Shown piece after piece: positions 59,925-64,000 of a DNA stretch of 64,000 nt; the first letter of the stretch is position 1, and every line of letters starts with the position of its first letter. The stretch comes from Corynebacterium halotolerans YIM 70093 = DSM 44683 (lineage in GTDB: Bacteria > Actinomycetota > Actinomycetes > Mycobacteriales > Mycobacteriaceae), in contig NC_020302.1 in the NCBI RefSeq assembly GCF_000341345.1, forward strand, positions 2,832,075-2,896,074, in the 5' to 3' direction. A program made the position numbers and the translations under genes. Below the pieces are notes generated by a model, which was not told the DNA's origin, did not search any database, and saw only the letters and a list, made by a program, of their open reading frames with translations.

Positions 59925-61037
59925 TCAGGCGCCGCAGGACTCCGCCGCCTCCCGCACGGCGGTGAAGGCCGGCTTCGGCGCGCCCGGCCCGTACAGCAGC
60001 CCGAAGTAGGATTCGCGGTCATCCGCCCCGAGATCCAGGTCATACATCGTGTACAGGAAGATCGGCCCCAGCCACGACTCGGACGAGGTGATCCGCAGTG
60101 CCTCGACCACCATGTCGGCCTGCGCCCGCTCACTCACCCCGCCGTCACCGCCGGTGGGCGCACCGTACTCCGTCAACCAGATCCGCTTCGCCCCGTCGCC
60201 ATGGGAGCTCATCAGTTCCCGGTAGTCGCGCAACTGCCGGAAGCCGTTCCAGCGTGAGTTGCCGGAGGGCCGTTCCGGATAGGAGTAGGGGTGCACGGCC
60301 ACCGCGGTCAGATGGTCGTGCGCCCCGAGCTCGTACAGCCGCCCCAGAAAATCCAGTCCGGCCACGGAGTATCCGGGCATGTTCGTCGCCGGGGCCAGCC
60401 CGCCGGAGATGATCTCCGCGCCGGGATCCGCGGTCGTGATTCTGGGGGAGGACTCGGCCAGCAGCTCCGCGTAGGCGTCCGGATCCGGATCGGGCCAGAA
60501 CCTGGCCAGATTCGGCTCGTTCCAGATTTCGTAGGCGTCGACCCGGTCGCCGTAGCGGGCGGCCACCGCCTCCGCGAACTCCCCGAATTCCGCGGCCGCC
60601 CCGCCACCGACCACACCGAAATCCTCGACCCAGTCCGGATACATGTGGATCAGCATCAACGGGACCAGTCCGGCCGCCACCGCCGCGTCGACGCGTTGGT
60701 CCAGACCACTCCAGTCGTACCGCCCCCGCTCGCGTTCGATGTCCTTCCAGACAGCGGACAACCGGATCCGTGTGGCGCCCAGGGTGACCTGCTCGTCCAC
60801 CATGTCCCGGAAATCACCGACGGGCATGCGCTCCCAGGCCGCCGGCCCCGCGATCCCGAGATCCCGGCAGCCCGCCGCGGACACCTCCGGCAGCTCCGCG
60901 GGCGCCTGTTGACTCCGCCCGGAGAAGGGGACGGTGATGGCGAGCACCAGGACCACCGACAGGGCGACGGTGACGCCGGTGATGATCCAGCCCCTCCGGT
61001 TCGCCGGCCCTTTCCTCACGGTGACGGGGTCAGTCAT
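59925..61037 (-). CDS. Membrane-anchored cellulase-family glycosidase (GH5/GH39-like)
   Basis: 370 aa. N-terminal anchor (GWIITGVTVALSVVLVLAITVPF), then a TIM barrel outside the membrane. The acid/base Glu is in VDAYEIWNEPNLARFW and the probable nucleophile Glu in RIWLTEYGAPTGG. HPYSYPERPSGNSRW lies between them. The ATG overlaps the stop of the upstream glycosyltransferase by 8 bp, so it probably trims or releases the polysaccharide that enzyme helps make. The substrate is unknown. Confidence 0.82.
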   Translation of the reverse strand: MTDPVTVRKGPANRRGWIITGVTVALSVVLVLAITVPFSGRSQQAPAELPEVSAAGCRDLGIAGPAAWERMPVGDFRDMVDEQVTLGATRIRLSAVWKDIERERGRYDWSGLDQRVDAAVAAGLVPLMLIHMYPDWVEDFGVVGGGAAAEFGEFAEAVAARYGDRVDAYEIWNEPNLARFWPDPDPDAYAELLAESSPRITTADPGAEIISGGLAPATNMPGYSVAGLDFLGRLYELGAHDHLTAVAVHPYSYPERPSGNSRWNGFRQLRDYRELMSSHGDGAKRIWLTEYGAPTGGDGGVSERAQADMVVEALRITSSESWLGPIFLYTMYDLDLGADDRESYFGLLYGPGAPKPAFTAVREAAESCGA

Positions 61038-62133
61038 GGCACAACGCCTCCAGCATCTTCGGGACGGTGACGGTCACATCGTGCCGTTCCAGGATTGCGG
61101 CGCGGGCGTTGTCGCGCAGCCGGTCGGCCAGCGCACGGTCGTCGAGCAGCGTCCGGATCGCCGCCGCCAGCGCGGAAGCGTCACCCGGGGGAACCAGGAG
61201 ACCGGCTCCCCCGCGCAGGTATTCCGCGGCCCCGCCGTGATCGGTGGCGATGACCGGAACACCGCAGGCCATCGCCTCGAGAACCCCCAACGGCCCCGCC
61301 TCCGGGGAGGTGGAGGCCGAGACCATGATGTCCCAACGCGGGAAGACCCGGTGCTTGTCGACGTGGCCCAGAAAACGCACCCTGCCAGCCAGGTCGGGCC
61401 GGGCGGCCCGGGTACGCAGTTCCTGTTCGAACTGCTCGGATCCGGGGAAGGCGGCACCTGCAATGTCGAGATGGACGTCCGGAAGCTCCGCGAGCGCCTC
61501 GAGGAGGACGTCATGGCCCTTCCACCCCGTGAGCACCGCCAGGATTCCCACGACGGGCCGGCCCGGGGTGGAGCCGGTTCCGCCGCTCATCTCCGTTGGA
61601 ACCGGGACGCCGTTGGGCCGGACCACGGTTCTGCGGACCAGTCGCCGGACCGAGTCCGCCGTGACCTCGGAGACGGCGACGGCCGCCGTCAGGGCGTGGG
61701 CCCCCAGGCGCAGGACCGTGCGTTGCTTCCGTGAGTGAATCGTGTCGTGGACCAGCCAGGAGATCTTCGGGCCCCGACCGCGGCGCCGGGAGTGGAAGGG
61801 GTAGGCCATCCCCACCGCCGGCAACGCGAACGTCGAGTTGATGATCACGGCGCCGGCTCCCCGGGCAGAACGCCGGATCCGCCGTGCGGTCCGCCACCAG
61901 CCACCGGGGAGCGCGGCGATGCTCCACAGGCGCCGTGCCCCACGCACCCCTCCCAGGCGGGACAGCGGAACGGGAACGTGGATGACCTCACCGGCGAGGA
62001 GTTCAGGCAGGTCCCCGGAAGGACAGAAGAGGGTGACCCGATGGCCGTCCGCCACCGCCTGCCGGAGCAGGTCGACGAGCACCCTCTCCGCGCCGGAGAC
62101 GTCGGCGCCCGCGTTCACCGCCACGATGTGCAT
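61030..62133 (-). CDS. GT4-family glycosyltransferase
   Basis: 367 aa GT-B enzyme. MHIVAVNAGADVSGAERVLVD at the start, WLVHDTIHSRKQR acceptor-side loop, donor site VLTGWKGHDVLLEAL and STSPEAGPLGVLEAMACGVPVIATDHGG (E-x7-E). ATG preceded by GGAAGGG. Leftward pair with the glycosidase and divergent from the sugar-transferase operon, so it belongs to an exopolysaccharide locus that continues past the window. Confidence 0.87.
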   Translation of the reverse strand: MHIVAVNAGADVSGAERVLVDLLRQAVADGHRVTLFCPSGDLPELLAGEVIHVPVPLSRLGGVRGARRLWSIAALPGGWWRTARRIRRSARGAGAVIINSTFALPAVGMAYPFHSRRRGRGPKISWLVHDTIHSRKQRTVLRLGAHALTAAVAVSEVTADSVRRLVRRTVVRPNGVPVPTEMSGGTGSTPGRPVVGILAVLTGWKGHDVLLEALAELPDVHLDIAGAAFPGSEQFEQELRTRAARPDLAGRVRFLGHVDKHRVFPRWDIMVSASTSPEAGPLGVLEAMACGVPVIATDHGGAAEYLRGGAGLLVPPGDASALAAAIRTLLDDRALADRLRDNARAAILERHDVTVTVPKMLEALCHD

Positions 62134-62648
62134 GATGGACCCTTCCAGTTTCTGGGCTCGGTGGCCAGCTGCGCATCCGGGAGCTGAACCTCCGCAGAAT
62201 GCCGGTCGCGCGCCCATCCTCGGGATGCAACCGACACGCGTCCCCGAACTGAGCACCACCCTATACTGAGCCGAACCTTAAGAAAAGCAAAGCGCCATCT
62301 TGCCATGACGCATAGGCCCCGCCCGGCACCCAAGGGCCCCCACCAGCAGAACCAGGGGGATGTCACCCCTCTCCACAACGCCCGGAAACAAGCCCGCCTT
62401 CCTCATTCTAATATTCTGCTTAAATTTTGATGTGGAAAGAGTTAGACTCGGCACCGGGAGACACCCGACGGTTTCCCGACGGCAACCATCCCCGCCCTCC
62501 ATCGGGAGCGGGGACGGCCCGGCAACCACCACGCAAGGACCGATCACCATCCGGTGGCTCCACCATTTTCCGTCACCCACCCGGAATGCCGGGCACACCT
62601 CACCACCAGTCTCTGTTCCCTCAGATTTCAGGCAATCAGGAGGATCCA
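62134..62648. other. Divergent control region of the exopolysaccharide locus
   Basis: 515 bp without a confident gene. AT-rich around 62395-62440 (TAATAT, TTAAATTTT, TTGATG), a probable rightward promoter zone. A leftward -10-like TATAGG lies near 62263-62268. The rightward leader then folds: CCATCCCCGC (62486-62495) pairs with GCGGGGACGG (62508-62517) with one mismatch. The leader could carry post-transcriptional control. Confidence 0.5.
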
Positions 62649-62732
62649 GTGTTCAAGAGCGGCCCCAGGAGATCCACATCAGACCTCCATAGCGAACCGA
62701 CACGCCCTCACCAAGGGCCCGGAGCGTTCTGA
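62649..62732 (+). CDS. 27-residue leader ORF coupled to the sugar transferase
   Basis: GTG with AGGAGG 5 nt upstream, the best ribosome site in the region. The stop shares a base with the next ATG (TGATG). The peptide starts MFKSGPRRSTSDLHSE and ends PHQGPGAF; it is basic, polar, with no recognised motif. It more likely sets translation of the sugar transferase, whose own site (GGAG) is modest, than acts as a protein. The same frame is open further upstream, so a longer product is possible but less likely. Confidence 0.5.
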   Translation: MFKSGPRRSTSDLHSEPTRPHQGPGAF

Positions 62733-64000
62733 TGGTCACCAAAGTTCCCGAGACATCTCCCCACCGGGTAGTGGACGGTGACACCGCCGTAGCGGTCAGG
62801 GACCGTAGCCGCTGGCCGGGTATCCTCGGCCGTTATCTCCCCGATCCGTGGCAGCGCCTGGCTGACTGCCTCATCGTCCTTACGGTGTGCGCCGTCGCCG
62901 ACCTCACGTACCCGCTGCTGACCGCTGTCGGAATCCTCCTCATTCTGACGGTGGTTCCGCGTCTCTACCGGTTCCGGCTGGGCATATCGGTGCTCGATGA
63001 ACTGCCACGGCTGCTCGTCGTGGGCACCATCGCCCCCTACGTGGCCTCCTCCGTGCTGAATCCGGAGCTGAGCTCATTCCACGATGTGGTCTTCTCGTTG
63101 GTGACGGCCGGTGGCCTGGTGTTCTCCCGCGTGATCGTCGCGGCGCTCCTACGGGCCCGGCGCCGGCGGAATCCCGCCGTGCTGAGCCGCACGCTCATCC
63201 TCGGTTGCTGTTCGGTCGCCCGGCAGCTGTGCCGGGATCTGAAGAACACACCCACCTTCGGGCTGCTGCCGGTCGCGCTCATTGACCGCGATCCGGAACC
63301 CGGCCCCGACATCCCCGGGCTCTCCCTGGAACCACTCGAAGACAACCTTCCCGAGCTGATCAGGAAGTACAGCGCGACGACGGTGATCATCGCCTTCAGC
63401 CGTTGCCCGGACGATCATCTGTTGACCGTCCTACGCTCCTGCGTGCGCGAGGAGGCGGAGCTCTACCTCGTTCCCCGTCTCCCCGAGTACCACGCGATGG
63501 ACAATGCCACGGAGATGATCGGGGCGATTCCCCTGCGCCACGTGCCCCGGGCGGCGCACCGATCCCTCACCTGGTTCCTGAAGCGCCCCTTTGATCTCCT
63601 GGTCAGCGGTCTGGCGCTGTGGGCACTGTCACCACTCCTGCTGGTATTGGCCGTGCTGGTGAAACTCGACACCAGGACCGCTCCAGTGCTGTTCCGCCAG
63701 GAGCGAATCGGCCTGGACGGCAAGCCCTTCGAGCTGCTGAAATTCCGTACCCTGACCCCCGCGGACCCGGGGGAATCCGATTCCCGCTGGAATATCGCGG
63801 GTGATGCCCGACTCACCCCGCTGGGCGCGGCCATGAGACGCTTCTCCCTGGACGAGTTACCCCAGCTCTACAATGTTTTCCGCGGGGACATGACGTTGGT
63901 CGGCCCGCGTCCGGAGCGCCCCTATTTCGTGCACAAGTTCGGGCAGGAGCTTCCCGGCTACCACGCCCGTCACCGCGTTCCGGTGGGGTTGACCGGCTGG
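62732..64000 (+). CDS. Polyprenyl-phosphate glycosylphosphotransferase, 3' end missing
   Basis: Initiates exopolysaccharide or glycolipid synthesis by moving a sugar-1-phosphate onto polyprenyl phosphate at the inner membrane. 423 codons are visible, open to the window end. N-terminal helices (about 45-140) are followed by a CoA-binding/Rossmann-like domain (SRTLILGCCSVARQLCRDL). The catalytic WbaP-type domain has FLKRPFDLLVSGLALW, VLFRQERIGLDGKPFELLKFRT, and DELPQLYNVFRGDMTLVGPRPERPYF. The N-terminus has no signal. Confidence 0.92.
   Translation, partial: MVTKVPETSPHRVVDGDTAVAVRDRSRWPGILGRYLPDPWQRLADCLIVLTVCAVADLTYPLLTAVGILLILTVVPRLYRFRLGISVLDELPRLLVVGTIAPYVASSVLNPELSSFHDVVFSLVTAGGLVFSRVIVAALLRARRRRNPAVLSRTLILGCCSVARQLCRDLKNTPTFGLLPVALIDRDPEPGPDIPGLSLEPLEDNLPELIRKYSATTVIIAFSRCPDDHLLTVLRSCVREEAELYLVPRLPEYHAMDNATEMIGAIPLRHVPRAAHRSLTWFLKRPFDLLVSGLALWALSPLLLVLAVLVKLDTRTAPVLFRQERIGLDGKPFELLKFRTLTPADPGESDSRWNIAGDARLTPLGAAMRRFSLDELPQLYNVFRGDMTLVGPRPERPYFVHKFGQELPGYHARHRVPVGLTGW

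What the first reader, a model, noticed from the sequence alone, without database searches (positions are those of the whole stretch)
62649..62732. Leader ORF overlapping the priming sugar transferase
A 27-residue frame with the strongest ribosome site of the region ends in TGATG with the transferase start. It follows a long, foldable leader. This suggests translational coupling or attenuation of exopolysaccharide initiation.
Basis: partly seen in the sequence, partly recalled or inferred. Interest (0 to 1): 0.5.

Follow-up and report, generated by a model that had tools for sequence, protein, structure and literature searches.

The report
Out-of-frame leader ORF abutting sugar transferase
A 27-codon reading frame with a good ribosome site really does end on the start codon of a surface-polysaccharide gene and may hand ribosomes on to it, but its peptide is not conserved, only one relative examined has a similar layout, and chance could explain it.

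Summary
Observation correct: AGGAGG, 5-nt spacer, GTG 62649, 27 codons, TGA overlapping the transferase ATG 62732 by one base. The genome matches Corynebacterium halotolerans YIM 70093 in size.

The transferase start (MV...P..S) aligns with three relatives (65-68% identity). Of seven other Corynebacterium loci examined, one (G164) has a similar out-of-frame GTG leader (AGGAG, 30 codons, TAATATG); six do not. The two peptides are unlike and their codons are not gene-like.

Chance: 0.1-0.15% of shuffles of this region give as good a case, but a 464-kb sample of the genome holds 3 such cases (SD of 5 or more) among 163 genes against 3.6 expected; homologues outside the genus show 3 of 79 against 2.3.

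The leader folds no better than shuffles (z -0.7), has no terminator-like site on its strand, and no Rfam match reaches its cut-off, so attenuation is not supported. A local hairpin (62682-62737, z -3.2) covers the transferase ribosome site, but 61 of 375 sampled starts cost as much to open.

Best reading (0.42): a cis-acting leader coupled by termination-reinitiation, peptide irrelevant. A functionless chance frame (0.38) is nearly as likely.

The parts
62638..62643 (+). Shine-Dalgarno AGGAGG of the leader ORF, 5-nt spacer to GTG
62649..62732 (+). leader ORF, 27 codons, GTG start, TGA stop; no Pfam match; codon use not gene-like
62682..62737 (+). local hairpin (-23.2 kcal/mol, z -3.2) that includes the transferase GGAG and ATG; the last 16 codons and the stop of the leader lie inside it
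   Evidence: no such excess in G164 (z 0.38), G149 (-1.37) or G087 (-0.83)
62721..62724 (+). weak SD GGAG of the transferase, 7-nt spacer
62730..62734 (+). TGATG stop/start overlap, one base shared
62732..64000 (+). polyprenyl-phosphate sugar (priming) transferase, runs off the window; 471 aa in the genome
62421..62448 (+). possible promoter: AT-rich stretch with TAAATT (62421-62426) and TAGACT (62443-62448), both fitting a TANANT -10 (motif recalled); the consensus scan found none
   Evidence: read by eye; negative
61030..62133 (-). divergent glycosyltransferase group 1 gene bounding the 598-nt intergenic region

Best explanation
The 27-codon frame is a cis-acting leader cistron. Ribosomes load at AGGAGG/GTG, translate through the hairpin that covers the transferase's weak GGAG and ATG, stop at TGA, and some reinitiate on the overlapping ATG. 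The effect would be to set, probably to raise, translation of the first enzyme of a surface-polysaccharide cluster. The peptide itself would have no role. Shown: the anatomy, the conserved start of the transferase, the lack of peptide conservation, and the similar layout in G164. Inferred: that the leader is transcribed and translated, that reinitiation happens, and that it matters.
For: Strong SD at good spacing and exact TGATG overlap, 0.1-0.15% in shuffles of the region. It is the only SD-led (5 or more) start in 300 nt, and so is its counterpart in G164, where a GTG frame with AGGAG and 30 codons ends TAA-T-ATG and the transferase has no SD in the tested spacing (shuffle frequency 0.47%). 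The ATG start aligns in G000, G164, G149 and G087. The transferase start region costs more to open (17.7 kcal/mol) than the leader start (10.9), with a local hairpin of z -3.2. Precedents, read in passages: M. tuberculosis uPPE2-PPE2, where an out-of-frame uORF with AUGA overlap is needed for PPE2 expression, mainly by termination-reinitiation (PMC11260477); engineered 62-bp fore-cistrons ending in TAATG gave more EGFP than the control in 15 of 24 constructs in C. glutamicum (PMC7251831).
Against: No clear enrichment of the layout in a 464-kb sample of the genome: 3 of 163 against 3.6 expected for SD of 5 or more, 2 against 0.9 for 6 or more, 13 against 11.5 for 4 or more. Absent, even at SD of 4 or more, in G149, G087, G239, G200, G020 and G082. 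No clear excess in 79 loci outside the genus (3 against 2.3 at SD of 5 or more; 0 against 0.35 at 6 or more). The leader and G164 peptides are unlike. The hairpin has no counterpart of similar excess in G164 (z 0.38), and 61 of 375 starts cost as much or more to open; starts with an annotated neighbour ending on them are no harder to open than others. The hairpin window was chosen after seeing the fold. No RNA or ribosome data.
Confidence: 0.42

Rival explanations
1. Chance frame. The SD-led GTG frame is one of the layouts a genome of this size holds by accident; it may be translated but has no effect on the transferase, which initiates by its own GGAG.
For: Genome sample and distant homologues show the layout at about the shuffle rate. 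Leader codon score -0.48 per codon, reached or undercut by 9 of 4479 gene windows; GC3 0.67 against 0.92 in called genes; another frame of the same stretch scores better, -0.40. Six of seven relatives examined lack it. Pervasive translation of short frames, most without signs of purifying selection, is reported for M. tuberculosis (PMC9094748, abstract).
Against: For this one region the layout is a 0.1-0.7% event, and it recurs in G164 (0.47% there; the frequencies for the seven relatives sum to about 0.06).
Confidence: 0.38
2. Repressive leader: its strong SD captures ribosomes and the TGATG returns only a fraction, so that the frame lowers rather than raises transferase synthesis.
For: The anatomy allows it. 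A uORF upstream of metE in M. tuberculosis suppresses MetE (PMC11260477, passages), though that one lies inside a riboswitch aptamer. The frame holds the rare pair AGG-AGA (2.4 and 0.5 per thousand codons).
Against: Tight stop/start overlaps usually favour reinitiation (established knowledge, not tested here); the rare codons fit the non-coding composition of the stretch.
Confidence: 0.1
3. Remnant or misread N-terminus: the SD-led start belonged to a longer transferase N-terminus that a frameshift (real, programmed, or a sequencing slip) has cut off.
For: In G239 and G200 the SD-led start is in frame with the transferase; by hand count it lies 171 nt before the conserved PWQRLAD segment in G239, against 194 and 205 nt for the leader GTGs of G000 and G164. 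The genome was first read by 454 (PMC3569386, section 9).
Against: Illumina reads were used for correction. The G000 and G164 leaders lie in different frames relative to the ATG (83 and 94 nt). The sequence after ATG 62732 aligns with G164, G149 and G087. No slippery heptamer seen by eye in the 39-nt overlap.
Confidence: 0.07
4. Transcription attenuation: leader translation decides between terminator and antiterminator, as in amino-acid biosynthesis operons.
For: A leader ORF after a long 5' region; an attenuating uORF is proposed in the genus for ilvB (PMC10272879, abstract).
Against: No + strand terminator-like site in 62100-62900; fold z -0.70; no Rfam family reaches its gathering score; no run of regulatory codons; the stop lies on the start codon, leaving no room for a terminator between them.
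Confidence: 0.03

Closest known systems
uPPE2-PPE2 of Mycobacterium tuberculosis (termination-reinitiation uORF)
   Same: Same order of bacteria (for Corynebacterium; Mycobacterium recalled); short out-of-frame uORF with its own SD, and a stop/start overlap with the main gene (PMC11260477, passages)
   Different: There the overlap is AUGA, PPE2 lacks an SD and a B12 riboswitch controls it; here TGATG, the transferase has a weak SD, no riboswitch match reaches its cut-off, and there is no experiment
Bicistronic / fore-cistron expression cassettes of Corynebacterium glutamicum
   Same: Short first cistron with an AGGAGG-type SD ending on the second start (TAATG) (PMC7251831, passages)
   Different: Engineered, with a strong second SD; here natural with only GGAG
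ilvB-II uORF of Corynebacterium
   Same: Genus and a leader ORF (PMC10272879, abstract)
   Different: Those peptides are enriched in branched-chain amino acids and the motif is conserved; here neither
mgtQ upstream of mgtB in Salmonella
   Same: Short ORF that promotes translation of the next gene, in a setting of alternative stem-loops (PMC8092293, title, abstract statement and section headings)
   Different: By those headings mgtQ needs ribosome-destabilising acidic residues; the first ten residues of the peptide here hold none

Membership tests
Translationally coupled leader ORF (termination-reinitiation) | Upstream short ORF with its own ribosome site | tested here: met
   AGGAGG, 5-nt spacer, GTG; by sequence only
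Translationally coupled leader ORF (termination-reinitiation) | Stop overlapping or next to the downstream start | tested here: met
   TGATG 62730-62734
Translationally coupled leader ORF (termination-reinitiation) | Downstream ribosome site weak or masked | tested here: inconclusive
   GGAG in a hairpin with z -3.2, but opening cost reached by 61 of 375 starts
Translationally coupled leader ORF (termination-reinitiation) | Arrangement conserved in relatives | tested here: inconclusive
   1 of 7 genus relatives examined (G164); 3 of 79 outside against 2.3 expected
Translationally coupled leader ORF (termination-reinitiation) | Downstream expression depends on upstream translation | not testable with these tools
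   needs reporter mutants
Transcription attenuator with leader peptide | Terminator/antiterminator between leader and gene | tested here: not met
   no + strand terminator-like site; z -0.70
Transcription attenuator with leader peptide | Peptide rich in the regulated amino acid | tested here: not met
   VFKSGPRRSTSDLHSEPTRPHQGPGAF, no such run
Conserved small protein | Peptide conservation or gene-like codon use | tested here: not met
   unlike in G164; codon score reached or undercut by 9 of 4479 gene windows

The most novel reading that the evidence does not exclude
The start of a surface-polysaccharide pathway in Corynebacterium is gated by an obligatory, peptide-independent leader cistron that arose when the SD-led start of the transferase fell out of frame with its gene, so that reinitiation (with occasional frameshifted long forms) now replaces direct initiation, independently in C. 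halotolerans and G164.
Probability: 0.07. Interest if true: 0.45.

Novelty: new member of a known kind. Interest (0 to 1): 0.18.

Why it matters
If the coupling is real, it is one more natural case of a short leader cistron controlling a gene by termination-reinitiation in Mycobacteriales, at the first step of a surface-polysaccharide cluster, and a ready-made native fore-cistron for corynebacterial expression work. If not, it is a useful calibration: in a 68% G+C genome, SD-led frames abutting a gene occur about as often as shuffles give.

Tried and rejected
Attenuator or riboswitch: Rfam on 62100-62900 with a permissive threshold gave one sub-threshold match on the other strand, E 4.2; whole-leader fold z -0.70; the consensus fold of four genomes is scattered and partly long-range, with 30 of its 53 pairs showing a two-sided change in at least one sequence but on an unreliable alignment that holds one near-identical pair, and no control was run on it. 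Rejected.

Conserved peptide: no Pfam match; codon use not gene-like; G164 peptide unlike. Rejected.

DNA-level conservation of the leader: 667 bases against 242 genus genomes hit only itself and one 37-base stretch in G221; no plasmid match. I had no second genome of the species to compare.

A frame in G149 and G087 that starts at -91 without an SD and runs past the transferase start (ends at +211 and +34) was considered as a relic and dropped, since the ends differ.

A family-wide trend in priming transferases was tested in 79 of the 80 loci kept (480 relatives were found there; L092 dropped, too near its contig end), with starts picked by script: no clear excess. The first scan with the single protein found no relatives. 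Protein searches: 993 plasmid records matched, 13 of them over at least 80% of the query, the best listed at 39% identity; 38 phage records, all under 60% identity and none over 80% of the query.

Not examined: two weak genus matches (G134, E 5e-7; G241, E 8e-4) and the second G020 locus (L041) were not tested for leaders. The transferase start used for G020 there is a TTG picked on its SD and is uncertain.

Full report
What is there. The reported frame exists as described. AGGAGG at 62638-62643 stands 5 nt before GTG 62649; 27 codons follow to TGA 62730-62732, whose last base is the A of the transferase ATG. The downstream frame is a bacterial sugar transferase (PF02397) with a CoA_binding_3 match before it, 471 aa in the genome. 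The genome has 3,222,008 bases in two contigs, the larger 3,135,752. These are the sizes published for Corynebacterium halotolerans YIM 70093 (PMC3569386, passages); the identity of the organism rests on that size match.

Setting. The transferase is followed by a group 1 glycosyltransferase on the same strand and, on the other strand, by a further group 1 glycosyltransferase, a protein without Pfam match, a Wzy_C (O-antigen ligase) protein and a polysaccharide synthesis protein. This downstream order recurs in G164, G149, G087, G239 and G200 (simple ORF calling). The divergent group 1 glycosyltransferase upstream was matched in G164 and G239 in the same place, and elsewhere in G020, but not in G149, G087 or G200. 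The gap between it and the transferase in the window is 598 nt.

Is the transferase start right? In the alignment the residues after ATG 62732 (MVTKVPETSPHR) line up with MVTGNPGASARQ in G164 and MVPINPSASPRQ in G149 and G087. Upstream of the ATG, G000, G164 and the G149/G087 pair show little alignable DNA, while G149 and G087 are alike there. The ATG is therefore very likely the real start. In G239 and G200 the SD-led start is in frame with the transferase.

Is the leader conserved? Ten of 242 genus genomes matched the first 283 residues, the window's own included. I examined seven others (G164, G149, G087, G239, G200, G020, G082; transferase identity 45-68%) and left out two weak matches (G134, G241). 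One of the seven, G164, has a comparable frame: AGGAG, 5-nt spacer, GTG at -94, 30 codons, TAA one base before the ATG, and a transferase without SD in the tested spacing. The two peptides, VFKSGPRRSTSDLHSEPTRPHQGPGAF and VLTQLPSPHARRHPSGSPGCADHLCKGMEN, are unlike. In each of these two genomes that GTG is the only start codon with an SD of 5 or more bases in the 300 nt upstream. The shuffle frequency for G164 is 0.47%; the frequencies printed for the seven relatives sum to about 0.06, more than half of it from G239, so one hit in seven is suggestive only. The closest relatives by transferase identity, G149 and G087 (68%), lack it.

How often would chance give it? Shuffles of the region itself: 0.115% for a 6-base SD with exact TGATG, 0.73% for a 5-base SD within 5 nt. 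But a genome scan looks at many genes. In 464 kb of this genome (20 stretches plus the window; 384 genes called by a simple script), 163 genes have at least 120 nt free upstream, and 3 have an SD-led (5 or more) frame ending within 5 nt of the start, against 3.6 expected. With SD of 6 or more it is 2 against 0.9, with 4 or more 13 against 11.5, and with a wider stop range (-20 to +30) 7 against 7.25. Genes with masked bases upstream, if any, were skipped after being counted; the sample holds only 6 masked bases. The transferase itself is not in that count because its frame runs off the window. Outside the genus it is 3 of 79 against 2.3, and 0 against 0.35 at SD of 6 or more. The SD test allowed spacings of 4-10 nt, and 3-10. 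So the layout is not clearly enriched, and about one example per fifty such genes is expected by accident, fewer with so strong an SD.

Does the leader look like a gene or an RNA switch? No. GC3 is 0.67 against 0.92 in called genes (0.82 in the transferase), and its codon score is reached or undercut by 9 of 4479 gene windows of the same length. The RNA from 62455 to 62760 folds no better than shuffles (z -0.70, 27 of 100 shuffles as good). There is no terminator-like site on the + strand and no Rfam match near its cut-off. A consensus fold of four genomes gives scattered pairs on a poor alignment; I do not count it as evidence either way beyond not showing an attenuator.

What favours coupling. 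A hairpin at 62682-62737 (-23.2 kcal/mol, z -3.2, 1 of 200 shuffles as good) holds the transferase GGAG and ATG, and the last 16 codons and the stop of the leader lie inside it, so a ribosome on the leader would open it. Of 36 sliding 70-nt windows, the two that hold this hairpin and one at 62450 have z below -2.9. Against this, the hairpin was picked after seeing the fold; the same stretch has z 0.38 in G164, -1.37 in G149 and -0.83 in G087; and 61 of 375 starts in the sample cost at least as much to open, 10 of 80 with a neighbouring gene ending on them and 51 of 295 without. The precedent is close: in M. tuberculosis the out-of-frame uPPE2 frame, with an AUGA overlap, is needed for PPE2 expression, mainly by termination-reinitiation (PMC11260477, passages), and engineered short first cistrons ending in TAATG gave more product than the control in 15 of 24 constructs in C. 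glutamicum (PMC7251831, passages).

Verdict. Observation confirmed. Coupling 0.42, chance 0.38, repressive leader 0.10, frame remnant or slip 0.07, attenuation 0.03. If functional, it is a new member of a known kind. A paper search on priming glycosyltransferase, exopolysaccharide, leader peptide, translational coupling and uORF (any three) found 14 papers and listed 10; by title and abstract start none of the ten concerns a leader frame at a priming transferase. One of them (PMC10294631, listing only) deals with the hmsE mRNA and biofilm production in another bacterium and often uses the word uORF, so uORFs near polysaccharide regulation are not new as an idea.

Noticed in passing
62292-62311 (- strand): Terminator-like hairpin with a T-rich tail about 160 nt upstream of the divergent glycosyltransferase, so in its possible 5' leader; 0.6 expected by chance in the region. 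The G164 and G149 intergenic regions also show such sites on that strand (2 against 1.1 expected; 9 against 1.4, of which 7 are one overlapping set), though G149 lacks that glycosyltransferase.
   Followed up: partly
62455-62516: Two strong G+C-rich hairpins just after the possible promoter, 70-nt window z -3.0; function unknown.
   Followed up: no
L043:5228-7823 (G164): Two adjacent paralogues (about 62% and 57% identity) of the cellulase-like gene at window 59925-61037, where the window has one.
   Followed up: no
window, whole: AGGAGG-N4-8-RTG occurs 14 times against 6.3 expected, 1 of 100 shuffles as many; how many lie inside genes was not counted.
   Followed up: no
62667-62672: Tandem rare arginine codons AGG-AGA as codons 7 and 8 of the leader (2.4 and 0.5 per thousand).
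   Followed up: partly
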